Counted from the stretch's first letter, positions 43,148 through 60,836 are shown. The stretch is 64,000 nt of DNA from Opitutaceae bacterium (GCA_028281165.1 JANQKI010000253.1:1-64000); one strand, 5' to 3'. A program made the numbers and translations. Notes: generated from the letters alone by a model not told the origin.

Positions 43148-43885
43148 TTATTTTGCAGGAGTTGATTCTGGAGCGGCAATCTCGGGAGGAGGCGCGTTTA
43201 TTATGCCCCTTTTAACGAACTTCACTACTTCGTCATCGCTTTTCAATTCGATATCCATGCTGGTGACCGTGTCCTCCCCGATGTAATCCGTAGCGGAGGC
43301 GATAAGGATGGGCATGTATTCGCGTAGATTGTCGCCTTTGTCGTCATTGACGACGCGTACATTCCAAATTTGCTGCGGAGGAGCGTCTCCAGCCTGGCCG
43401 ATCATGTTTTCCTTGGCGGTCAGTTCCAGGTATTTCTCGACTACAGTTTGCGTAACGACCTTTGTTTCGTAAGTGCTGATTTCGGTAATGCGACTGCCGC
43501 CTGACAAGCCGACTCCCCGGTTCAAGCCCCCGGTGCCTAATCCAACGCTGGATGGTCGATCGATAATCTTGGCTTCTTGGCGGGGAGCTTTCATTCCAAA
43601 GTCAACCTCGATCATCATATCCGCTTCCATCGGATCGACTGCCTCGTACATGCCCTTTCCGGATAGAGCTGTCTTTATCCACTCAACAGTTTCTTGGTAT
43701 CTTAAATCTGTTGTATCCGTGTCTGGATCACTGGGAACGATCACGTAGGAATCCGATTCAGCCACGGTTTTTGGATTATTGATCGCATCTACTTTCATTT
43801 CATAAGTCGAATTGCAGCCTGCCACCAATGAAGCTATCACGATTAGTGACAACGTTAGGGACGTAGCTGTTGTAGATGACTTCAT
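43148..43885 (-). CDS. DUF4136-like lipoprotein, copy 2
   Basis: 245 residues with a lipoprotein signal peptide (lipobox L-V-A-G-C, Cys about residue 24). The mature part has 'DAINNPKTVAESDSYVIVP', 'QETVEWIKTALSGKGMYEAVDP..ADMMIEVDFGM' and a C-terminal 'YLPI'-like (EYMPILIASATDYIGEDT) segment. The pattern of an Lp_ domain with a small alpha/beta fold resembles DUF4136. It is a clear paralogue of the next gene upstream (43% or more by eye over most of the length), so the pair arose by tandem duplication. Envelope-localised; function unknown. Confidence 0.75.
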   Translation of the reverse strand: MKSSTTATSLTLSLIVIASLVAGCNSTYEMKVDAINNPKTVAESDSYVIVPSDPDTDTTDLRYQETVEWIKTALSGKGMYEAVDPMEADMMIEVDFGMKAPRQEAKIIDRPSSVGLGTGGLNRGVGLSGGSRITEISTYETKVVTQTVVEKYLELTAKENMIGQAGDAPPQQIWNVRVVNDDKGDNLREYMPILIASATDYIGEDTVTSMDIELKSDDEVVKFVKRGIINAPPPEIAAPESTPAK

Positions 43886-44848: not shown

Positions 44849-45451
44849 CTAGATTTCGCTCGAAAGACTCAGGTCGGAACTAGCAGTGCCTTCCAGTTCT
44901 TCCAGTTCTCTTCTCAATCTCTCGGCTTCTTCCAACGCATCACGTTCACGTTGCTCCATTTCATCTAGTGTTTTCTTGCGCTCCAAGGCCGCTGCCTTCT
45001 TGGCCTGAAGAGCCTTGAGGTCTGCTTCGGCGCTTTCGGCGCGAGCTGTCATCTCGTCGAGCTCTGTATCGGTAATTCTAAAGCCTTCCGCGATATCCAG
45101 TTCCTCTTGAATTTGGGCTTTCTCTTTTTCCTGAGATCTTTTCTGAACCGCAATCGCCTGACTATAAGCTCTTTGCTGCGCTAGCTCATTCTGTCTTTTC
45201 GCTTCCTTGCTTTGCTGGATGGCCCCGATAGTAGCCCCAACGATGGCTCCGGCTGCTCCGGCTGCTGCTATTGTACCGGTGTCGCCGCCTGCCAGGGCCC
45301 CTGCTCCTGCTCCGACCAGCGCGCCGGTTCCTCCTCCCTTCACTGTTTTTGAAGTAGCAGGACCTGCACAGCCCCATTGGAACGCCAAAATTGTCACGGA
45401 AACAATTGCTGCTACCGTATTCCTTAGTACTAAAGCCCTGTTCATACCCAT
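44849..45451 (-). CDS. Glycine-zipper/coiled-coil lipoprotein
   Basis: 200 residues. The signal peptide ends in a lipobox-like Q-W-G-C (Cys about residue 28). A glycine-zipper segment (about 38-78: G-A-L-V-G-A-G-A-G-A-L-A-G-G and a second half) is followed by a long charged coiled coil (about 80-190). The YMGG/SmpA-type glycine zippers are membrane-inserting; the coiled coil could reach into the periplasm. The gene is divergent from the stator-like operon with 217 bases between, where promoters for both must lie. Confidence 0.75.
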   Translation of the reverse strand: MGMNRALVLRNTVAAIVSVTILAFQWGCAGPATSKTVKGGGTGALVGAGAGALAGGDTGTIAAAGAAGAIVGATIGAIQQSKEAKRQNELAQQRAYSQAIAVQKRSQEKEKAQIQEELDIAEGFRITDTELDEMTARAESAEADLKALQAKKAAALERKKTLDEMEQRERDALEEAERLRRELEELEGTASSDLSLSSEI

Positions 45452-45668: not shown

Positions 45669-46520
45669 ATGAAGAACAAAGGGTTTTTCTCCCAAGATTT
45701 TATCGTCCAGGTAGTCGGGCTGGTTTTCTCCATAGTCTTCGTATATTCAATATACAGTAACTACATTTGGCCTAAGGCTCAAAACATCGAGATAACCACA
45801 CGACTGCAGGCAAGTCAGAACCCGGAAGCGCCGATCGAGACGAATCGATCCATTGCTGTCATCTTAAAGAACCACGAGCAGATGTTTTGTCTGATGCTCA
45901 TGCTTTGGGCGTGCATCATTATTGGATACAAATTTTTTCGAGTGCATGGCGAGCAGTCCATGCAAGGCTACCAGTTCCTCAACATTTCGCGAGGCGAGCG
46001 TATTATTCCCGAGGAAGCTCTGATTCATCACAAAGACGTTGAAGGTCAGATGCGTCGAAATGGTCGATTGCGAAACAAGATTCTGCCGGACGTGATTCTG
46101 GCAGCCCTTCATCGCTTCGATTCCACGCAGTCAATTCAAGACGCCTCGCATGCCGTTCAAGAGCGCACGGCTATGGCTTATGAGCAACTGGAGTCCGACT
46201 TGTCCCTCGTACGCTACATTGCCTGGGCCATTCCGTCCGTTGGATTTATTGGAACAGTGCGTGGTATCGGTGAAGCCCTTTCTCATGCGGACAAGGCAAT
46301 TAAGCTTGGCGATATCAGCGATGTAACAGCGAGTTTGGGTCTGGCTTTCAATTCTACGCTGATTGCTCTCGTGCTCAGTATCGTACTCATGTTTTTCGTT
46401 CATCTGCTTCAGTCGAAGCAGGAGCACTTGCTGATAGATCTGGAGGACTTCGCCACCAAGAAGGTTGTTGGGATGATGAAGAAACCCGAAAGCGAAGAAA
46501 GCAAGATTTCCTTTACCTGA
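45669..46520 (+). CDS. MotA/TolQ/ExbB-type proton-channel protein
   Basis: 283 residues with four predicted membrane helices: about 8-30, 65-87, and the conserved pair at about 175-197 and 215-245. The pore motif 'PSVGFIGTVRGIGEAL' and the later 'TASLGLAFNSTLIALVLSIVLMFFVHLL' are the TolQ/ExbB/MotA signature, with the channel-lining Thr/Ser. The cytoplasmic loop (about 90-170) is long. Such proteins pentamerise around a dimer of ExbD/MotB-like subunits and let protons through to drive movement. The two vWA proteins encoded downstream supply the matching subunit. First gene of a four-gene operon. Confidence 0.88.
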   Translation: MKNKGFFSQDFIVQVVGLVFSIVFVYSIYSNYIWPKAQNIEITTRLQASQNPEAPIETNRSIAVILKNHEQMFCLMLMLWACIIIGYKFFRVHGEQSMQGYQFLNISRGERIIPEEALIHHKDVEGQMRRNGRLRNKILPDVILAALHRFDSTQSIQDASHAVQERTAMAYEQLESDLSLVRYIAWAIPSVGFIGTVRGIGEALSHADKAIKLGDISDVTASLGLAFNSTLIALVLSIVLMFFVHLLQSKQEHLLIDLEDFATKKVVGMMKKPESEESKISFT

Positions 46521-46534
46521 GTATCCATTGAATA

Positions 46535-48007
46535 ATGACGACTTTAGGACTTGAGTTAAGCGACGTTGGGATCCACGCCGTAGTGATTGAAGGGGATGGC
46601 TCCTCTCGGACTCTGAATCTGGGAGCGGATTCCGAACGTTATCCGGCGTTCGCATGCGTGAAAGACGGAGGACTTGTCTTTGGGCCCGAGGCGCAGGAGC
46701 TTTCCATGGTTTATCCGAGGCGCGCTTGCTCTGAGTTCATCGATGATCTTTCTTTTCAGGCTACTGTCTTGGAAGGTTACCGAGGTCGTTTCACGTATTC
46801 GCAACTTGCCTACAAGTTTTTTGAGCAGCTCGTAGCTCGAGTGCGCGAGGAGGTAGAGAATATCGATCATACCGTATTGGCTGTTCCAGGACATTTCCTT
46901 GAATCTAATGAGAAGTCCGAGGAACGTCTGGGCTTGCTGCTGGGGATCTTCAACGACCTTGATATTCCGTTCGCTGGAATTCTCGATATGGCAGCGGCCT
47001 CGCTTTACAGCGAAGGGCTTTGGCATGTGCCCGAGGGGGAGTGCATTTTCCATGTGGACCTTCTCTTGCATGCCACGCATATCTCTGTTTTCCACAAGCA
47101 AGCTGGATTGAAGCGAGTCTACTTCGCTCGGCTGCCCCAGCATGGCTTTGGTAAAATGCAAGAGCGTTTTGCAGGAGCTTTGGCGAACCGATTTCTTCAG
47201 CAGACTTCCTTTGACGTCAAAATAGATCGAAAAATCGAGAGAGCTTTTCACGCCCAGACTCGCGATATGCTTTTGCAACTAGGCCGAGTGGGCGAGGCTA
47301 GTCTCGAAGTGTCCACTCGAGAGAAATCGCGGCAGATGACGATCTCCAAAGAGATTGTAGCCATCGATCTGGCGCCGCAGGTCAAGATTCTAACGCAAAT
47401 GCTGCTTCGGGCGGTTAACGACTTCGCTGGCAAGGATGAGTCTATCCAGATCTGCTTATCGGAGAGAGCAGCAGCTATTCAGGGCTTAAAGGAATCGATC
47501 ATTTCTCAAGGGATTGGCCAAGTTAACGAGCTTCCTTTGGAAAGCGCGGCTTTTGGGGCTGCCAATTACGGCAAGAGCTGGGAGGCGGTCGACAACGTTG
47601 AGGAAATCAGAGTTGAAACCGGCATCGATCTGGAAGGCATTTCTGACGGCTCTGCTAATGGTGGCGTTTCGCAACAGTTGGGTGTGGCGCGTTTGCTAAA
47701 GGAAGGCAGATCGCTCAATCCAACTCATATTGTCTGCGATGGATTGGCCTATGAGCTTTCTAAAGAGGAATTCGTTTTAGGGGTAGGGGAAAGCGAGGAT
47801 TATGATCTCATGGTGGATCGGCATGAAGGAAGCGCTCCATTCGAGCTTTGTCGTGTCCTGAAAATCGAAGATCGTTGGGTGCTTTCAGATTCGAAAAACG
47901 ACGTGATCGATGCGAGTTCAAGGTCGGGAATCAAAGGAGGAGATTCCTTGCAAGTGACGATTTTAGGACGAACGAAGAATCTACTATTCGTTCATTGTCT
48001 CGTGTAA
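46535..48007 (+). CDS. Hsp70/actin-fold protein with FHA-like C-terminal domain
   Basis: 490 residues. Residues 1-380 follow the Hsp70/actin ATPase plan: 'LGLELSDVGIHAVVI' (phosphate-1-like), 'YPAFACVKDGGLVFGPEAQ', 'DHTVLAVPGHFLES', 'DLDIPFAGILDMAAASLYSEG' and a late 'LPLESAAFGAANYG'. The canonical Gly-rich phosphate-2 loop is weak (F-H-V-D-L-L-L-H), so ATP hydrolysis is uncertain. Residues about 405-490 ('FVLGVGESEDYDLMVDRHEGSAP..LCRVLKIEDRWVLSDSK') look like an FHA domain, which would bind phosphothreonine peptides. It lies 14 bases after the channel gene and ahead of the two vWA genes. A cytoplasmic regulator or assembly factor of the channel complex is my inference. Confidence 0.72.
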   Translation: MTTLGLELSDVGIHAVVIEGDGSSRTLNLGADSERYPAFACVKDGGLVFGPEAQELSMVYPRRACSEFIDDLSFQATVLEGYRGRFTYSQLAYKFFEQLVARVREEVENIDHTVLAVPGHFLESNEKSEERLGLLLGIFNDLDIPFAGILDMAAASLYSEGLWHVPEGECIFHVDLLLHATHISVFHKQAGLKRVYFARLPQHGFGKMQERFAGALANRFLQQTSFDVKIDRKIERAFHAQTRDMLLQLGRVGEASLEVSTREKSRQMTISKEIVAIDLAPQVKILTQMLLRAVNDFAGKDESIQICLSERAAAIQGLKESIISQGIGQVNELPLESAAFGAANYGKSWEAVDNVEEIRVETGIDLEGISDGSANGGVSQQLGVARLLKEGRSLNPTHIVCDGLAYELSKEEFVLGVGESEDYDLMVDRHEGSAPFELCRVLKIEDRWVLSDSKNDVIDASSRSGIKGGDSLQVTILGRTKNLLFVHCLV

Positions 48008-48037
48008 CATAAATTTAATTACAACTAATTTGAAATC

Positions 48038-49102
48038 TTGAAATTCAAACGAAAAGACACGGAGATTTTCAGCCTTTCCTTTTTGGATTGCGTTTGCTGC
48101 GGCTTTGGAGCCGTGCTCCTGCTTTTTGTGATAACCGCCAGCCGCAAGGCGGACACCCAGCTAGAGTTGAGGGCTCAGATCGATATCATCATCGGTCAAA
48201 TGGAGGATGAGATCGATAAGAAGAATATTACCATCGCCAATCTTCGCAGGTCGCTAACCATTGAGCGAAAGCGCAATCAGGATTCGATCATCACGCTGAA
48301 GGAAAAGAATAAGCTGAAGACCGAATTGGATGAAGAGCTTTCGTTGCTTCTAGCCAAACTGATGTCCTTGGAGGAGGCTCTTGGCAAGCTGATGAAAGAC
48401 AAGGAGAACATGCCAACTCAGGAAGAGGAACCTCCTCTTCCGATTCCCAACGAGGAGAAGCGACAGTATTTGACGGGATTCGATATGCTTGGGGACAACG
48501 TGCTTTTTCTCATCGAAGCTTCAGGTGGTATGACTAGCGATACTCAGGCTGAAGCCCAAGAGTTCATTGGCGCCGAAGATGACGAGAAGAGAAAGGCTCC
48601 CAAGTGGTCTCGCGTAAAGAAGGCCATGCAGTGGTTGATTGGAAATTTGAAGTTGGAATCCAACTACAAAGTCGTATTTTTCAATAATGAAATTCATGCC
48701 GTCACCACGAGATCAGGACAAGAGTGGTTCGATCCATCAGATCCAGATCTGACGGAAGAAGTGCTTGAAGAGATTGACAAGTTTGTGCCCAACGATGGCG
48801 CGAATCTCGAACGCGCTTTTGTAATGGTAAATGAGATGCCGATTGAGCCAGACCGGGTTATTCTGATCGTGGATGGACTGCCAACCCAAGCTGATTCCTA
48901 CGATGCTCCTTCCGCGCTCGAAGATCATGACCGCATGAATATGTTTCGCATTGCCAGGAAGGCTCTGACTACCCCGATTCCCATAAATACGTTACTCTTC
49001 CCCATGAAGGGCGACCCTGCGGCCGCCGTTCATTACTGGCGTCTTTCAGACGAAAATGGAGGAGCCATGGTTTGTCCCTCCAGGACTTGGCCGGATATCT
49101 GA
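48038..49102 (+). CDS. Membrane-anchored coiled-coil vWA protein (degenerate MIDAS)
   Basis: 354 residues from a TTG start (no ATG covers the membrane segment). A membrane helix at about 11-33 contains 'FSLSFLDCVCCGFGA', with Asp17 at the place of the proton-binding Asp of ExbD/TolR/MotB. A coiled coil (about 40-125) and a Pro/Glu linker lead to a vWA domain (about 150-350). The metal-site motif DxSxS reads E160-A-S-G-G, so metal binding is doubtful; 'VILIVDGLPTQAD' is intact. It probably pairs with the downstream paralogue and with the MotA-like protein. The 3' end is one base from the next start codon. Confidence 0.75.
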   Translation: MKFKRKDTEIFSLSFLDCVCCGFGAVLLLFVITASRKADTQLELRAQIDIIIGQMEDEIDKKNITIANLRRSLTIERKRNQDSIITLKEKNKLKTELDEELSLLLAKLMSLEEALGKLMKDKENMPTQEEEPPLPIPNEEKRQYLTGFDMLGDNVLFLIEASGGMTSDTQAEAQEFIGAEDDEKRKAPKWSRVKKAMQWLIGNLKLESNYKVVFFNNEIHAVTTRSGQEWFDPSDPDLTEEVLEEIDKFVPNDGANLERAFVMVNEMPIEPDRVILIVDGLPTQADSYDAPSALEDHDRMNMFRIARKALTTPIPINTLLFPMKGDPAAAVHYWRLSDENGGAMVCPSRTWPDI

Positions 49103-49103
49103 G

Positions 49104-50204
49104 ATGAATAAGAAAAAGCGAAAGAATAACGTATTCAGTCTTTCATTTCTCGACTGTATTTGCTGCGGGTTCGGGGCTATTATCTTATTGTTCATCGTAT
49201 CCATGGGAGTGAAGGCTAAGGAAATCAGCGAGCTGCGTGAAGCTCTGGAGCGTATCATTCAGCAAAGACTCTTGCAGGTTAGCGAATTCGAAATGCAGAC
49301 TGAAGAGCTCTCGATCTTATTAGCTATTGAGACCGAAAAGCGGAAGAAGGTCGAGGATGAGATCTCCTCTTTGGAAGCGATGATTGCCGAGCTCAAGAAT
49401 CAGATTCAGGACAAGAAGTTCAGCGAGGATAAAATGCTTGTCGATTTGGACGAGCTTAAGAAGGAACTGGCGGTTCTGCAGGTCGATATCGATATCGAAC
49501 AAAAGCAAATCGAGCCAACTCCAGTTGGAGTTCCGGTCGAGAGCAACTATATCGCTTTCGTTATCGATACTTCTGGCAGTATGCGTGATTCCAGTACGGG
49601 GATGATTTGGAGTTACGTTGTACAGAAATTCGAGGAAACCGTACAATCCTATCCCGAAGTCAAAGGTATTCAACTTTTGGATGCGGATGGACACTTCATC
49701 ATGGGACGAGGCATGCGGCGCAAATGGATGGACGATTCCCCGGAAACCAGAAACCTAATGGTGCGTTCCGTTCGGCTTTATCCCTATGAGAGCGATAGCA
49801 ACCCCATGCCAGGAGTCGTGAGAGCTATCCGCACTCTCGCCGAACCTGAGAACGAGGAAATGAAGATGGGAATCTATATCTTCGGGGACGAGTTTGCCGG
49901 GCGAAACTCGGATGCGATTCTCAATACTATTGATAGGATCAATAAGAACAAGGATGGCGATCGCATCGTGCGTATCAATGCCATCGGATTTCCCAACATG
50001 ATTCGGCAAGCTCTCTCCTTGAGCCAATCCGGTTTGCGGTTCGCTTCGCTTATGCGACGCTTAACGTTCGATAACGATGGAGCTTTCGTCGCTTTGGAAC
50101 GTCAATCCCTGATGGAAATCGAAAAAGAGAATCGAGATAGATACCCTCGCCTTCCTCCAAGGCAGCCTACCGGACCATCCATTATCTTTGGTCCTGGAAT
50201 TTAA
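49104..50204 (+). CDS. Membrane-anchored coiled-coil vWA protein (intact MIDAS)
   Basis: 366 residues from the ATG at 49104, one base after the previous stop; an earlier in-frame start (49056) only overlaps that gene. The same layout as the upstream gene: basic tail, membrane helix with 'FSLSFLDCICCGFGA' and Asp17 in the same register, coiled coil (about 38-135) and a vWA domain (about 148-350). Here the MIDAS motif D155-T-S-G-S159 is intact, with 'GIYIFGDEF' later. Tail ends in Pro/Arg/Ile-rich residues. Predicted as an ExbD/MotB-type partner whose vWA arm engages a periplasmic ligand in a metal-dependent way. Confidence 0.78.
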   Translation: MNKKKRKNNVFSLSFLDCICCGFGAIILLFIVSMGVKAKEISELREALERIIQQRLLQVSEFEMQTEELSILLAIETEKRKKVEDEISSLEAMIAELKNQIQDKKFSEDKMLVDLDELKKELAVLQVDIDIEQKQIEPTPVGVPVESNYIAFVIDTSGSMRDSSTGMIWSYVVQKFEETVQSYPEVKGIQLLDADGHFIMGRGMRRKWMDDSPETRNLMVRSVRLYPYESDSNPMPGVVRAIRTLAEPENEEMKMGIYIFGDEFAGRNSDAILNTIDRINKNKDGDRIVRINAIGFPNMIRQALSLSQSGLRFASLMRRLTFDNDGAFVALERQSLMEIEKENRDRYPRLPPRQPTGPSIIFGPGI

Positions 50205-50838: not shown

Positions 50839-52062
50839 CTATCTTTCCGAGAACGCATTCATCTTCGCCCGTAGTAAAGGCTTAAGCAAGTAGTCTAGAA
50901 TGCTTTTCTTGCCGGTCAGTATGTCTACTTCAACTACCATGCCAGGAATTATAGACAATTCCTCGTCATTGTTTCTCAAAGACCTATCTCCAGTCCGTAC
51001 TTTTATCTGATAAAAGCTCTCACCCTGTTCATTGGTAAATGTATCCGCGCTGATCTGTTCCACCGTTCCATCAAGTCCGCCGTAAATGGAAAAATCGTAA
51101 GCCGTAAGCTTAACGGTAGCTTTTTGTTTCGGTCTAATAAAAGCAATGTCCGACGGGTTTATGTTGGCTTCGACCAGCAATGAACCCTCCAGAGGCACAA
51201 TTTCAACAATGGGAGCTCCTGGCTGGATGACGCCTCCTATGGTGTTGATGTGAACCTTGTTGATCGTGCCGTAAACGGGTGAGCGAATAGTGGCTCGTTT
51301 AACTTTGTCCTCGTAGGCCCCGATGCTTTCCTCCAGCTGCTCTAATTTAGAGCTGGTCTCATTTCGCCGCGCCATGACTTCGTTCATGTAGTCGGCTCGA
51401 ATCTTCAACAACTCGCCTTCTAGATCGTTTACTGCTGTCTCAAGACGGAGCAGCTCTACACGAGAAACGACGCCAGTCTCAGCTAGCGGCTTTGTAATGT
51501 CCAATTCACTACGTTTTAGTTCGAGGCTTTTTGAAAGGTATTCCTCGTTTCGTATCAGATTGGTTCGCCTGGTGTTGAAGAGAGTCGTTTCGCTTTTTAC
51601 CAAATCCTGCCGATTGTCCAAAATGATCTGCGGAAAATCGATCGATTCGCTCTCGCTCGCTTCCGCATTGAGTCTTGCGACTTTTGCCAGCAAGTTGTCG
51701 TAACCCGCCTTGTTTTCGCGGTAGTTGGCCGAGAAGGCTGTATCATCGATCAACAACAGGACTTGTCCCTCTTCTACAGTTTGCCCTTCTTCGATATAGA
51801 TATCCGATAGAATGCCGCCTTCAAGACTCTGCACGATTTTTGTGGATCCAGAGGGGATGACCTTCCCTTGACCTCGTGTTACTTCATTAACCTTGGCATT
51901 TGCAGCCCAAATTATGAATACAACTACGAAGGCGGTTATAGCGAACAGCAGTATATTCGCATAGGGCATCTTTTCCTCGAGAAAGGCCGCCTTGCAATCA
52001 GCAATAAAGTCGAGATCCTCCGTTTGGACCTTACCGTTTTCTTCTTTCACTTCCTGACTCAT
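50839..52062 (-). CDS. HlyD-type periplasmic adaptor of type I secretion
   Basis: 407 residues. Membrane helix (about 35-57), 'GQGKVIPSGSTKIVQSLEGGILSDIYIEEGQTVEEGQVLLLID', a long alpha-helical hairpin (about 120-270), a lipoyl/barrel part 'ATIRSPVYGTINKVHINTIGGVIQPGAPIVEIVPLE' and C-terminal 'VEVDILTGKKSILDYLLKPLLRAKMNAFSER', the typical end of LapC/HlyD adaptors. It links the inner-membrane ABC transporter to TolC. The start overlaps the ABC stop (ATGA). Confidence 0.94.
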   Translation of the reverse strand: MSQEVKEENGKVQTEDLDFIADCKAAFLEEKMPYANILLFAITAFVVVFIIWAANAKVNEVTRGQGKVIPSGSTKIVQSLEGGILSDIYIEEGQTVEEGQVLLLIDDTAFSANYRENKAGYDNLLAKVARLNAEASESESIDFPQIILDNRQDLVKSETTLFNTRRTNLIRNEEYLSKSLELKRSELDITKPLAETGVVSRVELLRLETAVNDLEGELLKIRADYMNEVMARRNETSSKLEQLEESIGAYEDKVKRATIRSPVYGTINKVHINTIGGVIQPGAPIVEIVPLEGSLLVEANINPSDIAFIRPKQKATVKLTAYDFSIYGGLDGTVEQISADTFTNEQGESFYQIKVRTGDRSLRNNDEELSIIPGMVVEVDILTGKKSILDYLLKPLLRAKMNAFSER

Positions 52063-54293
52063 CAGTTTCTTCCTGCCGCCGCGCCTGAAAGCTGGCGCAT
52101 GACGTCTGTTTTCGGCCCATCAGCTGCAATTTTGCCTTGATCCATCACGATGATACGATCGACCAGCTTCAGCATCGAGGGCTTGTGAGTAGAGATGATC
52201 AACGTGCGGTTACCCTCTTTAGCATAATCGTCGATCTGGTTAATGAATTCGCGCTCGGCGTTGGCGTCCATCGAACTGGTGGGCTCGTCCATCACTAGAA
52301 GAGGAGGTTTCGCCAGTAGAGCTCGGGAAATATTCACCGCTTGCCGTTGGCCTCCAGAAAGAAGATCCCCGCGTTCTCCAACCGGAGCATCGTAGCCAAG
52401 TGGGTGCTTTGATGCGAAGCGCTCCACGCCTCCTCTATTGGCGGCCTCGATCATAGCTTCTTCATCCAGCCAAGGAGCGCCCATCATGATGTTGTCCTTC
52501 AAGTTTCCATAGAAGAGAATGTTCTCTTGGCCGATGTATCCAATTCTTCGGCGCACCTCTGCCGGATCCATTTGACGAATGTCTGTACCATTTATTAAGA
52601 CCATCCCTTCTGATGGCTGGTAGAAGCCTAGGGCTAGCTTTAGCATAGTGCTTTTACCCGAGCCTACACGACCGAGAACGGCTACTTTTTCGCCAGGCTC
52701 GATTTTAAAGTTCGCGTTGCGTAGAGCGGGCGCTGATTCTTTATTGTAGGCGAAGGCGACTTCCTGGAATTCGAGACTCGGCTCGAAATTGGACTTTCGA
52801 ATGTAATTCCTGTTTTCTTCTCTTTCCTGCGGAAGACTGATCATTTCGTTCAACCCTCGAAGGGAAACCAGCGACTGTTGCAGACGAGATAGCAGAGCGG
52901 CAACTTGACCGATGGGAGCCATGGCTCGACCTGTCAAGATTGTGCAGCCGATCAGAGCTCCCATGCTCATCTCTCCAGCTTGTATCCGATAAACGGAAAC
53001 AACTACAATTACCACGGTTGTCATCTGAGTGATGAACATGGTAAAGTTGGTAGCCAGAGAGGAATAGCGACGCGAGCTGGCTTCGCTTTTCGCCATTTTG
53101 CCTAGGCATTCTTCCATGCGCCTTTGGAATTGACCTGAAGCGGAGAGCCCGCGAATGACTTCAAGGCCATTGATGGCCTCTACGAGGACGGCATGCTTCT
53201 GAGCGGAAGATCCGTGGGCCATTTCGGCGGCTTTCCTAAGAGGAACACGCATCATTGCTCCTGTGATGAGTATCACACTTATGGATGCTAATGGGATGAT
53301 CGCTATCCAACCCGCGATAAAACTCATGAAGCAGAGAAAGAGAACGACGAATGGCAGATCAATGATTGTGGTCATCGAGGCCGAGGTGAAGAATTCGCGT
53401 AAGCTCTCGTAACCTTTGACTTGATTGGCAAAACTTCCGGCAGACCCTGGCTTATTCTTCATCTTTATGCCTAGAATTCGCTGGAAGATGAAACTGGACA
53501 TGAGAACGTCAGCGTTCTTGCCTGCCTTGTCTATCAGTGTGCCTCGAAGAGATTTAAGGATGAAGTCAAACACATAGACGACACTGATGCCTGTGGCCAA
53601 CACCCAGAGCGTATCGGTCGCGTTATTCGGTATCACTCGATCGTATACGTTCATGATGAACAGTGTGCCGGCTACCGCGAATACATTGATGAATACCGCT
53701 GCGATGATTACGTTCGCGTAGATTTTCTTGTACTTCCAAAGAGTACCCCAAAACCAGTTTTTGGAATCAATAGAATCGGATGATGTTTTAGCTCTGTCGT
53801 CGAAATTGAATTCCGGCTTGATGAAGATGGCGTGTCCCTCGTAGTCCTTCGAGAGTTCATCAATGCTAGCGACTCTTTCGCCCGTTCCCGTCTCAGGAAG
53901 CACTATGCGTAGCTTCCCGTCTTCAGTTTTTCCTACCAACAGGGCGGCTTGATTCTCCTTAAGCAAGATAGCGCAGGGAAAAACCAGCACGGGAATTTTA
54001 TTCAGAGGGCGTTTAACGATTCTCGCAGAGAAACCCGCGTTAGCGGCTGCTCTGAGAAAAAGTCGGGGGGTGAGCTTGTTATCGACTAGTGGAAGACCAG
54101 AAATGAGCATGTCACTCGAAAGCTGGCGATCGTGCAGCTTGCCAAGCAAAAGCAGACAGTTAAGCAGCGGATCGTCTTGATGGAAGTCCGATTCTTGCAA
54201 GTCGGCTACTAGTCGATTGGAAGGCTCTTCTTCCAACGACCCAGCAGGTAGCCTCGAAGTGGGAGTAGCTTCTTTATGTTGTTCGGTTATCAT
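52062..54293 (-). CDS. Type I secretion ABC transporter (LapB-like)
   Basis: 743 residues. An N-terminal C39-like domain (about 40-160) lacks the catalytic Cys, the non-cleaving form seen in RTX-adhesin exporters. The transmembrane domain (about 185-460) and ATPase domain follow with Walker A 'GRVGSGKST', signature 'LLSGGQRQAVNISRAL' and Walker B 'PLLVMDEPTSSMD'. It exports large proteins with C-terminal secretion signals in one step. No RTX or adhesin gene is within the window, so the substrate is elsewhere. Confidence 0.94.
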   Translation of the reverse strand: MITEQHKEATPTSRLPAGSLEEEPSNRLVADLQESDFHQDDPLLNCLLLLGKLHDRQLSSDMLISGLPLVDNKLTPRLFLRAAANAGFSARIVKRPLNKIPVLVFPCAILLKENQAALLVGKTEDGKLRIVLPETGTGERVASIDELSKDYEGHAIFIKPEFNFDDRAKTSSDSIDSKNWFWGTLWKYKKIYANVIIAAVFINVFAVAGTLFIMNVYDRVIPNNATDTLWVLATGISVVYVFDFILKSLRGTLIDKAGKNADVLMSSFIFQRILGIKMKNKPGSAGSFANQVKGYESLREFFTSASMTTIIDLPFVVLFLCFMSFIAGWIAIIPLASISVILITGAMMRVPLRKAAEMAHGSSAQKHAVLVEAINGLEVIRGLSASGQFQRRMEECLGKMAKSEASSRRYSSLATNFTMFITQMTTVVIVVVSVYRIQAGEMSMGALIGCTILTGRAMAPIGQVAALLSRLQQSLVSLRGLNEMISLPQEREENRNYIRKSNFEPSLEFQEVAFAYNKESAPALRNANFKIEPGEKVAVLGRVGSGKSTMLKLALGFYQPSEGMVLINGTDIRQMDPAEVRRRIGYIGQENILFYGNLKDNIMMGAPWLDEEAMIEAANRGGVERFASKHPLGYDAPVGERGDLLSGGQRQAVNISRALLAKPPLLVMDEPTSSMDANAEREFINQIDDYAKEGNRTLIISTHKPSMLKLVDRIIVMDQGKIAADGPKTDVMRQLSGAAAGRN

Positions 54294-55174
54294 CAGAGGT
54301 TACTGGTCAAATCGATGATGTTCTCATGTAGCTCTTCCATTTCGCGGAGCTTTCTTTCCATCTCTTTTCGCTTTGTAATGTCCTGGATCGTGCCTTCCAG
54401 GAATACTGGCTTTTCTGGATCGTCTTGAATTTTCCAAACGTTCATATCGGCTTCCAACATTGAGCCGTCTTTGCGATGAAAAGCGGCTTCGAACTGTTCG
54501 CTTTCATTGACCATCTCCCTCAATTGAACAGTACGAGTTTGCCGTGTATTCACATCGTGGATCTCTGGAACGAGAACTTCCACGCTTTGCATGAACTCTG
54601 TGGGATTCTCAAATCCGAATGCGTTGGCCAATCTTCGATTCGCGTCGAGTAGCGTGCCGTTTTCCGAACAGCGGAAGATTCCGATGTGGGCATTCTCGAA
54701 AAATCCTCGATACTGCGCCTCGCTTTCCTTTAGAGCGCCTTCCAGGCGTTTGTTTTCACGACGATTGGAGGCTTCCTCCAAGTGGCTCTTTATAGCCGGT
54801 ACAAGGCGAGCTGTATTGCCTTTCATGATATAATCATGAGCTCCCATCTTCATGAGATCTACGGCCGTTTCCTCGCCAATTTTGCCTGAAACCAAGATGA
54901 AAGGAATGTCGAGCTCATGCTCCTGGAAAACCTTCAAGGCCCTCGTTCCATCGAAATCCGGCATCTGGTAGTCGGAAATGATGATGTCCCATTTTCTCTC
55001 CGAGAGGGCGCTGTGCATCTCCTCTTCCGTTTCCACTCTGTCATGGATAACAGTGTATCCATTTTTCTTTAACAAATTAGCGATGAATTTAGCCTCGATC
55101 TTGGAATCCTCCACGATGAGGACCTTCAATTCGGGCTTTTCTTGGGGCAGCGCGTTGTGGTTCGACTTTTCCAT
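54293..55174 (-). CDS. Response-regulator receiver-PAS protein
   Basis: 293 residues from the ATG at 55174; a GTG at 55201 overlapping the tolC stop is an alternative. Receiver domain (about 15-135): 'VLIVEDSKIEAKFIANLL', 'DIIISDYQMPDFDGTRAL' (phosphoacceptor Asp), 'PFILVSGKIGEE', 'DYIMKGN' with the switch Lys. A PAS domain with PAC segment follows (about 155-275: 'GFFENAHIGIFRC', 'FRKDGS'-like, 'EGTIQDITKRKEMERKL'), then the protein stops with 'LHENIIDLTSNL' just where a kinase or cyclase domain would begin. It sits inside the secretion operon, overlapping the ABC gene by one base. Confidence 0.85.
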   Translation of the reverse strand: MEKSNHNALPQEKPELKVLIVEDSKIEAKFIANLLKKNGYTVIHDRVETEEEMHSALSERKWDIIISDYQMPDFDGTRALKVFQEHELDIPFILVSGKIGEETAVDLMKMGAHDYIMKGNTARLVPAIKSHLEEASNRRENKRLEGALKESEAQYRGFFENAHIGIFRCSENGTLLDANRRLANAFGFENPTEFMQSVEVLVPEIHDVNTRQTRTVQLREMVNESEQFEAAFHRKDGSMLEADMNVWKIQDDPEKPVFLEGTIQDITKRKEMERKLREMEELHENIIDLTSNL

Positions 55175-55197
55175 TTCAATTTGGCTATAAAATTTGA

Positions 55198-56508
55198 TCA
55201 CTGAACAAGAAGCGCTTCGAGCAGATCTCCTGAAGCAGCTAGAGCTCTATAGGCGGCTTGGAGGCGATTGTATCGCTCTTCGGCAACAGATGATTTTGCT
55301 GACAGAAGCTCGTTTTCGACATCGAGCACGTTTATAAGAGCTCTTTGGCCTAACTCGAATTGCTTGCGATAAGCTGAGACAACCGACTCCATTGAGCTCA
55401 TGTAGTCCTTTAATTGATACAGTCTTTCTTCTGATGTCTGGAGATTGCTTAGGGCGCTCAAGAAATCCGATTGAGCAACGAGATGAGCGTAGTTGAGATC
55501 GAATCTGGCCTTTTGATAGAGCGAGTTGGCTCTCCTTAATTCCGCGCTCCGACTGCCTCCATCGAATAGGTCCATAGAGAAAACGACAAAGGCTGCTGCT
55601 TCCTCTCTAGGTCCGAGTCTTTTCGAATCGCTAGCATCGCCTTGAGCTAACAAACTGAATGTAGGTGAATAAGCGCTACGAGAAACACTTACTTTGGCAT
55701 CCGAGGCGGCGAGATTGGCTTCGGCTAGACTTATGGCAGGATTGCGGCTTAGATCGACCTCGTCGATTGAAACGGGCAGGGCCCATTCCGGAAATTCGGG
55801 TTCGGTCAACTCCAACGGGTCTTCTCCCGTAAGCTCCTTGTAGTTGATGATAGCCAGATCTAGCTGGCGGCGACGGTTCTCCAGAGTGGCTTCCGCCATT
55901 GCCAATCGAGCCTGCACTAGATCGACATCCGCTTTGGGCCCAGCTCCGCTAGCGAATTTCCGATTCATTTTTTCTAAAGCGTCTTGATGGCCGAAAACGT
56001 TTTCGTTCGCGTAGCCAATCAGTTCTTGGTACCGGATAATGTCTACATAGGTGTTGGCCAGATTCAGAACCAGATTTTGCTTTAGATCGTCAATGGCTCT
56101 GATACTCGATTGATAGTTGTATTCAGCTTCGCGGATACGATTGCGCGTCGCTCCTCCATCGAAAACCAACTGATTGGCGGATATCGAAGCATCGCCCCGT
56201 TCTCCAAGCTGTTTTCCCGATACGCCGAAATTATTGAAATGCTCTTCGCCGCCTTTGGCGTTGAAGGCTAATGCGGGGCGTAGTCTGCTTCTTTCGAACC
56301 GAATCGTATTGAATTCCGCTTCCGAACGAGACGTTTCGCTTTTCAGTCGCGGGTGATAGTCAAGAAGACCCATTATCGCGTCGCTCAAAGTTTGGCCGGA
56401 GAGGCTTTGAGCGCTCAGTAAAAGTACGCAAATACACGCCCACCAATGGCGACCTGGCGCGATTGTGGGATTAATGCGTGGACGTGGGCTATGTGGTTTT
56501 GTTTTCAG
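55198..56508 (-). CDS. tolC: TolC-family outer-membrane channel, start codon unclear
   Basis: TolC-type protein: tandem outer-membrane-efflux repeats, e.g. 'LSDAIMGLLDYHPRL', 'FDGGATRNRIREAEYNYQSS', 'KFASGAGPKADVDLVQARLAMAEATLENRRRQLDLA' and 'LFDGGSRSAELRRANS'. The first standard start (TTG 56388) lies after the signal peptide: upstream in frame the codons give 'WWACICVLLLSAQSLSGQ', an obvious signal peptide, and the frame stays open to a stop at 56521-56523 with no ATG, GTG or TTG. CTG at 56508, with GGGA upstream, is the best guess. It completes the type I system with HlyD and the ABC transporter. Confidence 0.85.
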   Translation of the reverse strand: MKTKPHSPRPRINPTIAPGRHWWACICVLLLSAQSLSGQTLSDAIMGLLDYHPRLKSETSRSEAEFNTIRFERSRLRPALAFNAKGGEEHFNNFGVSGKQLGERGDASISANQLVFDGGATRNRIREAEYNYQSSIRAIDDLKQNLVLNLANTYVDIIRYQELIGYANENVFGHQDALEKMNRKFASGAGPKADVDLVQARLAMAEATLENRRRQLDLAIINYKELTGEDPLELTEPEFPEWALPVSIDEVDLSRNPAISLAEANLAASDAKVSVSRSAYSPTFSLLAQGDASDSKRLGPREEAAAFVVFSMDLFDGGSRSAELRRANSLYQKARFDLNYAHLVAQSDFLSALSNLQTSEERLYQLKDYMSSMESVVSAYRKQFELGQRALINVLDVENELLSAKSSVAEERYNRLQAAYRALAASGDLLEALLVQ

Positions 56509-58601: not shown

Positions 58602-60836
58602 TTAAAGTCCAAGCTGCTTTTTCTCTATTTTCTCTTTTTGTATTTCGCTTTTCGGTTGGCGAAATAGAGCGACTCTGAAACCGATGCTGCTGCTATTAGC
58701 ATCTGGGCTGTACCAATTACGATTCGCGGTGCGGCAAGCATAAGGATTATTGCTCCAGCAACCGCCGCGTACTGCGCGTACTTTACTCGCATCGGAGTTT
58801 ACCATGTCAGTGAGGATGCTAGTGAAGAAATCGTCGTTGCGGTCTTTGCACCATTCCCAGACGTTTCCGTGCATATCGTAGAAGCCCCATGGGTTTGGCT
58901 TCTTCGATCCAACCTTGTGCGTTTGAGCGTTGCTGTTGGCTGCGTACCATCCGAATTTCGATAGGTGCTCCTCTCCATCGCCATAGCTGAACATTGTATT
59001 GGTTCCAGCACGACAAGCATAGACCCATTCTATCTCACCAGGTAGTCTGAATTGATAATCGTCATCTAGGTCATCGGGTATGAGACTGTTTAATTCCTGA
59101 CAAAATCTTTGGGCATCGTACCACGATACTTGCTCAACAGGCAGGTCCTTTTCGCTATCCGATTTAAAAAAGCTAGGGTTGAACTCCATTATGGATTGGA
59201 AGACGCGTTGAGTAACAGGAAATTGGCCAAGCCAATAGCCTTCCTTTATTTCGACTACTATAGGCGATTTGCGATGCCCAATTGTAAACGATCCTGGCTC
59301 TACCCAAAGCATATCCAGAAACACATCTTCATCTATACCGAAGGAGACGGGCAAGCCGACTGTTGGCGTATCCGGAATCGCTCCCGTTGTAATGGCTTGA
59401 TCAAATCGCGCTCCTTCCAAAAGGCATTTCTTGAAGTTTACTTCGCTCAAATCCGCATCCTGAAAATTCGCGTTTCGCAAGTCTGCTCCTTCAATAACGG
59501 CTCCTTTAAGATCAGCTGCCTCGAAACCGAAAGTCGAAAGCTGGAGATCGCGCATGATAAGCTTTTTGTCCTTCAAGTCCTCATCCATGCCACGACCCTT
59601 TACAATGAAATCGATCATTTTATTGGTCGCGAAATCCGGTACCACGATCTCTTTTTCATCACTCGAATCAAAAATGCTTTGCACTGCTAGAAAATCGCGA
59701 AACGTTTGATGGATGAAGCGATAATGCGTTTGGCCTGCTTGATCCCGAAAACGATGCAGGAGAGCGCTCGGCAAAAACTCAACGGCTCTCAATGGAATAT
59801 TGTTCTGTATTGAAATAAAGGATTCAATTGCAATGTTTTCGGGAATTGATTCTAATCCCTCCTTTACCATTAAAAGGGCGATTTGCTTTACGGCATTGTA
59901 TAACGACTCGATGGATACATTAAGGTTTTCCTTTTCGTGAGCTTCCTCTTCACGTATCAGCCATTGAATGACAGCCGTTTCGATGATGGAATATTCATCG
60001 TTTGCTGGCTCGTCGCTTTTCATTAGATCTTCGATGAGCGACAGCATTTGCGGACGAAAACGCAGTTTGCCCATCGACTCCACTCGGGAGTAGGCGAGTT
60101 CACTCTTGGCTCGTCGCGCGATCTTATCCTTCCAGTTGCGCTTGAAACGCTTCTCAAGGTAAGCCGAGACTTGGTCCTCGTCGAAATCGAGAAGCATCAT
60201 GGTTGGGCAATCGAACTCTCCGATTTTGCCCTCCTCTTCGTCCAATTCGGGATTCTTGATGTTTTGGAGAAAATAGCGATTTTGGCAGGAAATAAAAACG
60301 CGCAGAAAACCGCGCGTTGCTTCGAGCAGTTCAAGAAGTCTCTGTCTGGCGTTTCCTTTGGCTAATGGATCCTCGTCTAAGCCGTCTAGAAGGATCACTG
60401 TTTCCATTTCCTTCTCGATTAATTTGATTTTGCCGATCGCATCCTGACCAAGGGAAATGAATTCGCAGCGATAAGGAACTGGGCGGTGCTCCGTTGCGTG
60501 AGCGAGTTTGAGCATAGTCAGGAGCGACGTCTTTCCCGTGCCTGAGTCGCCCAAGACAAGCATCTGTCGTCCTCCTGCCTTCGAGGGATCAACGCCATTG
60601 CCTAGGAATAGATTAATAGCATCGAAGGCTAGGCACGGTTCTTTGCCATTATTGTCGGTATGGTCTTTGTAGCGACAACGCGGTTCTACATAGTTTCGTA
60701 AGAATGACTCAGGATCTCGTAAAATGGCATCGATTTGCGAGCCCTGGGATGCCCCTCGCTTGCGTGATTTGCGCAAGCTTTCCTCGATAGGCTTTAGCCA
60801 CTCGGCAGAGATGTAGGTTTCAACCATTTCCGACAT
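58602..60836 (-). CDS. NACHT-like NTPase with pentapeptide repeats and FGE-sulfatase domain
   Basis: 744 residues. STAND/NACHT-type NTPase core (about 88-390): Walker A G96-DSGTGKT (to 103), Walker B 'VILLDGLDED' (147-156), then helical winged region with 'HYRFIHQTFRDFLAVQSIF' (371-389). Pentapeptide repeats follow at about 439-478 (ADLKGA, ADLRNA, ADLSEV, CLLEGA). A formylglycine-generating-enzyme/SUMF1-like domain closes (about 505-725: 'MLWVEPGSFTIG', 'PVEQVSWYDAQRFC', 'FRLPGEIEWVYACRAG', 'GFYDMHGNVWEWC', 'VRGGCWSNN', 'GFRVAL'). NACHT proteins with sensor tails include antiphage and signalling proteins. It stands alone, 403 bases from cysK. The trigger and any effector action are unknown. 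Confidence 0.85.
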   Translation of the reverse strand: MSEMVETYISAEWLKPIEESLRKSRKRGASQGSQIDAILRDPESFLRNYVEPRCRYKDHTDNNGKEPCLAFDAINLFLGNGVDPSKAGGRQMLVLGDSGTGKTSLLTMLKLAHATEHRPVPYRCEFISLGQDAIGKIKLIEKEMETVILLDGLDEDPLAKGNARQRLLELLEATRGFLRVFISCQNRYFLQNIKNPELDEEEGKIGEFDCPTMMLLDFDEDQVSAYLEKRFKRNWKDKIARRAKSELAYSRVESMGKLRFRPQMLSLIEDLMKSDEPANDEYSIIETAVIQWLIREEEAHEKENLNVSIESLYNAVKQIALLMVKEGLESIPENIAIESFISIQNNIPLRAVEFLPSALLHRFRDQAGQTHYRFIHQTFRDFLAVQSIFDSSDEKEIVVPDFATNKMIDFIVKGRGMDEDLKDKKLIMRDLQLSTFGFEAADLKGAVIEGADLRNANFQDADLSEVNFKKCLLEGARFDQAITTGAIPDTPTVGLPVSFGIDEDVFLDMLWVEPGSFTIGHRKSPIVVEIKEGYWLGQFPVTQRVFQSIMEFNPSFFKSDSEKDLPVEQVSWYDAQRFCQELNSLIPDDLDDDYQFRLPGEIEWVYACRAGTNTMFSYGDGEEHLSKFGWYAANSNAQTHKVGSKKPNPWGFYDMHGNVWEWCKDRNDDFFTSILTDMVNSDASKVRAVRGGCWSNNPYACRTANRNWYSPDANSSSIGFRVALFRQPKSEIQKEKIEKKQLGL

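What the first reader, a model, noticed from the sequence alone, without database searches (positions are those of the whole stretch)
45669..50204. Candidate new proton-driven envelope system: MotA/ExbB-like channel, Hsp70/FHA-like protein and two vWA-tipped MotB/ExbD-like subunits
Seen: four adjacent + strand genes (gaps of 14, 30 and 1 bases). The first has the TolQ/ExbB/MotA pore motif. The last two share a single membrane helix with F-S-L-S-F-L-D-C and Asp17 in identical register, then a coiled coil, then vWA. Known: ExbD, TolR, MotB and ZorB each use one helix with a conserved Asp as proton partner of a MotA-like pentamer. Inference: these two are the heterodimeric partner, with vWA replacing the usual peptidoglycan-binding arm, and the actin-fold/FHA protein as a phospho-dependent regulator. 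I know no named system with this set.
Basis: partly seen in the sequence, partly recalled or inferred. Interest (0 to 1): 0.85.

Follow-up and report, generated by a model that had tools for sequence, protein, structure and literature searches.

The report
Proton-motor cassette with twin vWA axle
Four neighbouring genes very probably encode an ion-driven membrane motor of the flagellar-stator/TolQ-ExbB kind whose axle is made of two different adhesion-domain (vWA) proteins, with an Hsp70-shaped cytoplasmic partner; the motor idea was already proposed from genome data in 2025 but has never been tested, and the Hsp70-shaped partner and the outer-membrane neighbours are added here.

Summary
In detail: four tandem + strand genes (45669-50204; gaps 14, 30 and 1 bases) encode a MotA/TolQ/ExbB channel, an Hsp70-fold protein and two single-helix coiled-coil vWA proteins with Asp17 in the same register. 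The set is real and old. Of 103 sampled loci from Verrucomicrobiota, Gammaproteobacteria, deltaproteobacteria and Acidobacteriota, 80 carry the full order channel-Hsp70-vWA-vWA; most others are cut by contig ends. The helix Asp is present in all 205 vWA copies examined, the two pore threonines in all 90 channels. In 150 family genomes the Hsp70-like gene and the vWA pair co-occur (52 both, 96 neither, 2 single). Most likely mechanism: a pentameric channel turned by ion flow around a vWA-A/vWA-B heterodimer with periplasmic heads, and the Hsp70-like protein as cytoplasmic regulator. The core reading is not new: Mol Biol Evol 2025 msaf138 proposed paired transpore-helix vWA proteins with a TolQ-like pentamer. 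Corrections: the FHA domain is degenerate in this genome, and the Hsp70 lacks ATPase motifs. Added here: the conserved Hsp70/FHA subunit, TPR and PEGA-FGE neighbours, and lipoprotein neighbours. No complex was modelled or tested.

The parts
45669..46520 (+). P0001: MotA/TolQ/ExbB-type channel subunit with an extra N-terminal transmembrane helix
   Evidence: PF01618 E 2.7e-15; TolQ E 4e-7; aligned with E. coli TolQ/ExbB/MotA
46254..46256 (+). P0001 Thr196 (GTVRGI, third membrane helix), aligned with the TolQ/ExbB GTV threonine
   Evidence: GTVRGI in 90/90 cassette channels; alignment
46356..46358 (+). P0001 Thr230 (FNST, fourth membrane helix), aligned with the TolQ/ExbB ATAIGL threonine
   Evidence: FNST in 87/90, FN[TA]T in the other 3; alignment
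46535..48007 (+). P0002: Hsp70-NBD-fold protein with C-terminal FHA-like domain, predicted cytoplasmic
   Evidence: AF2 pLDDT 82; Foldseek DnaK E about 1e-18; VIA Z 34 to Ssz1/Hsp70
47681..47998 (+). P0002 C-terminal beta domain: degenerate FHA-like domain
   Evidence: aligned with canonical FHA (PF00498 E 1.6e-13 best) in relatives; no hit in the window copy
48038..49102 (+). P0003 (vWA-A): membrane helix, coiled coil, vWA head with non-canonical MIDAS (EASGGM)
   Evidence: AF2 model helix 10-123 and alpha/beta domain 154-354; Foldseek vWA domains E down to 1e-7
48086..48088 (+). Asp17 codon of P0003, predicted ion-carrying residue
   Evidence: Asp in 102/102 family members (motif variants read by eye in the same output)
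49104..50204 (+). P0004 (vWA-B): membrane helix, coiled coil, vWA head with intact DxSxS (DTSGSM)
   Evidence: profile match to P0003 family, prob 100, E 3e-38; DxSxSM in 102/103 family members
49152..49154 (+). Asp17 codon of P0004, predicted ion-carrying residue
   Evidence: Asp in 103/103 family members
44849..45451 (-). Divergent glycine-zipper lipoprotein, conserved neighbour and candidate outer-membrane partner
   Evidence: homologue beside the cassette in 52 of 103 loci, and beside the Hsp70-less cassettes L208, L209
44037..44816 (-). DUF4136-like lipoprotein, conserved neighbour
   Evidence: PF13590 E 2.2e-3, below the curated cut-off; cluster in 44 loci
43148..43885 (-). DUF4136-like lipoprotein, paralogue of the preceding one
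   Evidence: PF13590 E 4.6e-5, below the curated cut-off; same cluster

Best explanation
The four genes encode an ion-driven (probably proton) inner-membrane motor of the 5:2 class. P0001 forms the pentameric ring. P0003 and P0004, paralogues with the same membrane helix, form the two-helix axle, most likely as a 1:1 heterodimer; their Asp17 residues take and release the ion opposite the ring threonines Thr196 and Thr230, so that ring and axle turn against each other. The axle continues as a coiled coil into the periplasm and ends in two vWA heads: the P0004 head keeps the metal (MIDAS) motif, the P0003 head does not in this lineage. The heads would pull on, or transiently bind, an envelope partner, with the neighbouring glycine-zipper and DUF4136-like lipoproteins as first candidates. 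P0002, an Hsp70-shaped protein without ATPase motifs, would sit on the cytoplasmic side and gate or assemble the motor. Shown: sequences, folds of P0002 and P0003, conservation, synteny, co-occurrence. Inferred: pentamer, heterodimer, rotation, ion, lipoprotein partner, role of P0002.
For: Channel family and pore residues. Helix Asp in 205/205 vWA copies. vWA fold and long helix. Order channel-Hsp70-vWA-vWA in 80 of 103 loci over Verrucomicrobiota, Gammaproteobacteria, deltaproteobacteria and Acidobacteriota. Co-occurrence of P0002 and P0004 in 150 family genomes: 52 both, 96 neither, 2 single. The vWA genes occur as two different paralogues, with the MIDAS motif kept in vWA-B (102/103) but altered in about 60% of vWA-A, which argues for a heteromer. 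No ExbD gene by the cassette. Independent published AF3 model of what appears to be the same family with the helix in the pore.
Against: No complex was predicted or tested here. Profile comparison found no detectable homology between the vWA helix and ExbD helices. Twelve ExbD hits elsewhere in the genome could in principle serve the channel in trans. A few lineages lack the Hsp70-like gene (4 intact channel-vWA-vWA loci), so it is not part of the minimal core. No function or phenotype is known.
Confidence: 0.65

Rival explanations
1. The vWA proteins are side-binding force transducers of TolA/TonB type, attached to the rim of a ring whose axle is an ordinary ExbD/TolR supplied in trans.
For: A different vWA family of that kind has been proposed (PMC12204202); the genome holds 12 ExbD hits.
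Against: No His or SHLS motif in either helix; invariant Asp in 205/205 copies; no ExbD gene beside the cassette; in the published survey the paired vWA family also lacks tolR/exbD.
Confidence: 0.1
2. P0003 and P0004 form homodimers in two alternative motors sharing one ring (pairing is likewise unresolved for AglR with AglQ and AglS in Myxococcus), not a heterodimer.
For: AglR with AglQ/AglS is a precedent of one ring gene and two axle genes whose pairing is unresolved (PMC9389320).
Against: Both genes are kept side by side in nearly every locus, and the MIDAS motif is altered in vWA-A only, which fits a fixed pair better.
Confidence: 0.13
3. The complex is not a motor but a gated ion channel or sensor: the vWA heads detect an envelope ligand and the Hsp70/FHA protein passes the signal on in the cytoplasm.
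For: Common cytoplasmic Hsp70/FHA partner; canonical FHA in several relatives; MIDAS-type ligand motif in vWA-B.
Against: Pore threonines and helix Asp match those of force-generating relatives; the Hsp70-like gene is missing in some lineages while ring and axle stay.
Confidence: 0.12

Closest known systems
Transpore-helix (TPH) vWA proteins with a TolQ-like pentamer (Mol Biol Evol 2025, msaf138, PMC12204202; in silico only)
   Same: TolQ-like gene, no tolR/exbD, two different vWA genes with an Asp-bearing helix, Thr ring, Proteobacteria and Verrucomicrobia
   Different: That text does not mention an Hsp70/FHA gene, PEGA-FGE or lipoprotein neighbours for this family; direct homology with its Idiomarina reference was not tested here
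TolQ-TolR and ExbB-ExbD
   Same: Ring family (PF01618), pore threonines, Asp near the cytoplasmic end of a single axle helix
   Different: Axle is two vWA paralogues without an ExbD domain; ring subunit has an extra N-terminal helix; no TolA/TonB gene in the cassette
MotA-MotB
   Same: Ring family and the general two-part design
   Different: No OmpA/peptidoglycan-binding domain on the axle; E. coli MotA lacks the GTV threonine motif in the alignment
Zorya (ZorA-ZorB)
   Same: Ring subunit weakly matches ZorA models (E 2e-5)
   Different: No ZorB or other Zorya protein among the four
AglR-AglQ-AglS of Myxococcus gliding
   Same: One ring gene with two axle genes (PMC9389320)
   Different: AglQ and AglS carry TolR-like peptidoglycan-binding domains, not vWA
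Ssz1 and other atypical Hsp70s
   Same: P0002 fold (VIA Z 34.3 to Ssz1)
   Different: C-terminal FHA-like domain instead of a substrate-binding domain; phosphate-loop motifs missing

Membership tests
MotA/TolQ/ExbB channel family (PF01618) | Profile match over the curated cut-off | tested here: met
   56.7 bits against a cut-off of 22.9, E 2.7e-15
MotA/TolQ/ExbB channel family (PF01618) | Pore threonines of the TolQ/ExbB type in the last two helices | tested here: met
   Thr196 and Thr230 align with E. coli TolQ/ExbB; conserved in 90/90
ExbD/TolR (PF02472) for P0003 and P0004 | Profile match | tested here: not met
   No hit up to E 1; helix profiles no better than reversed controls
ExbD/TolR/MotB-like axle (works like) | Single membrane helix with conserved Asp near its cytoplasmic end | tested here: met
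   Asp in 205/205; one hydrophobic region in each protein; the in/out orientation is inferred from charges
TPH-vWA motor of msaf138 | TolQ-like gene beside two different vWA genes, no tolR/exbD | tested here: met
   absence of exbD was tested genome-wide only for the window's genome
TPH-vWA motor of msaf138 | Sequence homology with the Idiomarina reference proteins | not tested
5:2 rotary motor | Pentamer around a dimer | not testable with these tools
   No multimer prediction available
vWA domain proteins | vWA fold | tested here: met
   P0003 by AF2 and Foldseek; P0004 by motif, weak VWA_2 hit and profile match to P0003, not folded
Hsp70 | Nucleotide-binding-domain fold | tested here: met
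   VIA Z 32-34 over about 340 residues
Hsp70 | Phosphate-loop motifs for ATP hydrolysis | tested here: not met
   DLGT-like motif absent in 92/92, GGGT motif absent in 91/92 (motif search)
FHA domain (phosphopeptide binding) in P0002 | PF00498 match and SRxH motif | tested here: not met
   No hit in P0002; PF00498 hits in 5 of 17 aligned members
Zorya | ZorB and accessory proteins beside ZorA | tested here: not met
   Only weak ZorA hits, on the channel

The most novel reading that the evidence does not exclude
A trans-envelope ion motor with an obligate asymmetric (1:1) vWA axle, only one head of which holds a metal-dependent ligand site in this lineage, switched from the cytoplasm by a dedicated non-ATPase Hsp70/FHA protein and acting on a dedicated outer-membrane lipoprotein.
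Probability: 0.35. Interest if true: 0.78.

Novelty: new member of a known kind. Interest (0 to 1): 0.52.

Why it matters
If right, this is a widespread but unstudied ion-driven machine, present in roughly 7% of sampled genomes of a gammaproteobacterial class and in a third of sampled genomes of the window's own family. It would be a motor whose axle itself carries adhesion-type heads, and one in which a heterodimeric axle can be tested directly. A dedicated Hsp70-shaped cytoplasmic partner would be unusual for this motor class.

Tried and rejected
Plasmid and viral relatives: none found for P0004 in plasmids or P0002 in viral contigs. Anti-phage defence system: only weak ZorA matches, no other Zorya parts. 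Helix homology with ExbD by hhalign on N-terminal profiles: not above reversed controls. Known-structure relatives of P0003/P0004 by sequence: mostly coiled-coil chance matches and weak vWA. A PEGA-FGE partner in the window genome: the only strong FGE hit, window 58602-60836 (-), is a NACHT-pentapeptide-FGE protein, a different architecture. Coevolution between ring and axle helix was not attempted because the helix is nearly invariant. The VIA-align list for P0002 tested residues 1-351 only; the C-terminal domain was judged from the sequences of relatives. MoxR-vWA and GTPase-Hsp70 conflict systems (eLife 2020): no MotA/TolQ/ExbB in that paper, not pursued.

Full report
What is there. The four ORFs exist as described, on one strand with gaps of 14, 30 and 1 bases. 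P0001 is a MotA/TolQ/ExbB channel (PF01618 E 2.7e-15). P0002 has no Pfam hit, but its AF2 model (pLDDT 82) is an Hsp70 nucleotide-binding domain: Foldseek DnaK E about 1e-18, VIA Z 34.3 to Ssz1 over 348 residues. P0003 models as a 114-residue helix (membrane segment plus coiled coil) and a vWA domain. P0004 was not folded; it has the vWA signature DTSGSM, a weak VWA_2 hit, and its family profile matches that of P0003 over 230 columns with E 3e-38. Codon-position differences against a same-genus relative show strong purifying selection on all four.

Is it a system. Relatives were gathered by whole-genome search and by a GTDB scan (557 matching stretches encode a relative of the vWA-B query, a lower bound). 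Of 103 loci examined, 80 have channel-Hsp70-vWA-vWA in that order and most of the rest are cut by contig ends. A second, distant paralogous cassette in two genomes keeps the same four-gene plan. In 150 genomes of the window's family, the P0002 and P0004 families are both present in 52, both absent in 96 and single in 2; one single is a genome 75% complete, the other a match at a contig end. These genomes are related, so the co-occurrence is not a count of independent events. Four intact loci have ring and axle genes but no recognisable Hsp70-like gene, so the minimal core is ring plus two vWA genes. Frequency by sampled group: 53 of 150 in the family, 18 strong matches of 289 in the phylum, about 18 of 274 in the class of Parahaliea, 3 of 148 in the phylum of L124 and 1 of 149 in that of L117, the last two counts including the genome that served as centre.

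Motor signatures. The helix Asp is present in 102 of 102 vWA-A and 103 of 103 vWA-B proteins (the last case resolved). The channel's GTVRGI is in 90 of 90 and FN[STA]T in 90 of 90; in an alignment with E. coli TolQ, ExbB and MotA (loci) both threonines fall on the TolQ/ExbB threonines of the last two helices, which are described as the essential ring lining the pore in that family (PMC12204202). Cassette channels form one clade apart from the genome's own ExbB paralogues and E. coli homologues, with moderate support 0.75. The genome has 12 ExbD and 16 MotA_ExbB hits in all; the nearest ExbB/ExbD pair is about 16 kb downstream, outside the window. Profile comparison of the helix with ExbD found nothing above reversed controls, so the axle assignment rests on motif, position and context, not on demonstrated homology.

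Asymmetry of the two heads. vWA-B keeps DxSxSM in 102 of 103 loci. vWA-A has DxSxSM in 37, RxSxSM in 39 and ExSx[GS]M in 22; the window copy reads EASGGM. This asymmetry and the steady presence of both genes favour a heterodimer, as inference.

The Hsp70-like protein. The Hsp70 phosphate motifs are absent in 92 of 92 (first loop) and 91 of 92 (second loop) by motif search. The C-terminal domain is a canonical FHA domain in several deltaproteobacterial and gammaproteobacterial relatives (PF00498 E down to 1.6e-13) and degenerate in the window. A phosphopeptide switch is therefore plausible for some relatives but not supported here.

Neighbours. In Opitutae, divergent lipoprotein genes (glycine-zipper; DUF4136-like) flank the cassette in 52 and 44 loci, and the glycine-zipper gene also flanks two cassettes without the Hsp70-like gene. 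In other phyla a TPR gene and a membrane protein with PEGA repeats and an FGE-sulfatase-like domain usually stand upstream, and lipoproteins and an M48-like peptidase gene downstream in many Gammaproteobacteria. These are candidates for envelope partners, by proximity only.

Prior work. PMC12204202 (Mol Biol Evol, June 2025) describes a family of vWA proteins in heterologous pairs beside tolQ-like genes without tolR/exbD, with a transpore helix, a conserved Asp and an AF3 model inside the pentamer. The description fits this cassette closely, though the reference proteins were not compared here. Its text has no mention of Hsp70 or DnaK, and its one FHA hit is the name FhaC. No other paper in the held library was found that joins these parts. 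The finding is therefore a new member of a known, untested kind, with added components.

Noticed in passing
window 58602-60836 (-): NACHT/AAA-like protein with pentapeptide repeats and a C-terminal FGE-sulfatase domain, an architecture reminiscent of conflict-system NTPases.
   Followed up: partly
L042 and L043 (genomes G126, G008): A second, distant paralogous cassette with the same four-gene plan, plus PEGA-FGE and other genes upstream.
   Followed up: partly
loci L111-L131, L198-L207, L217: Extended operon in Proteobacteria and others: TPR - PEGA/FGE - small protein - channel - Hsp70/FHA - vWA - vWA - two lipoproteins - M48-like peptidase, with variations.
   Followed up: partly
window 50839-56388 (-): Run of HlyD-like, ABC-transporter, response-regulator and TolC-like ORFs just downstream, looking like a type I secretion set (read from the translations).
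   Followed up: no
window 49104-50204 (+), C-terminus of P0004: Close relatives share a proline-rich tail with a PSIIxGP-like sequence that more distant members lack.
   Followed up: no
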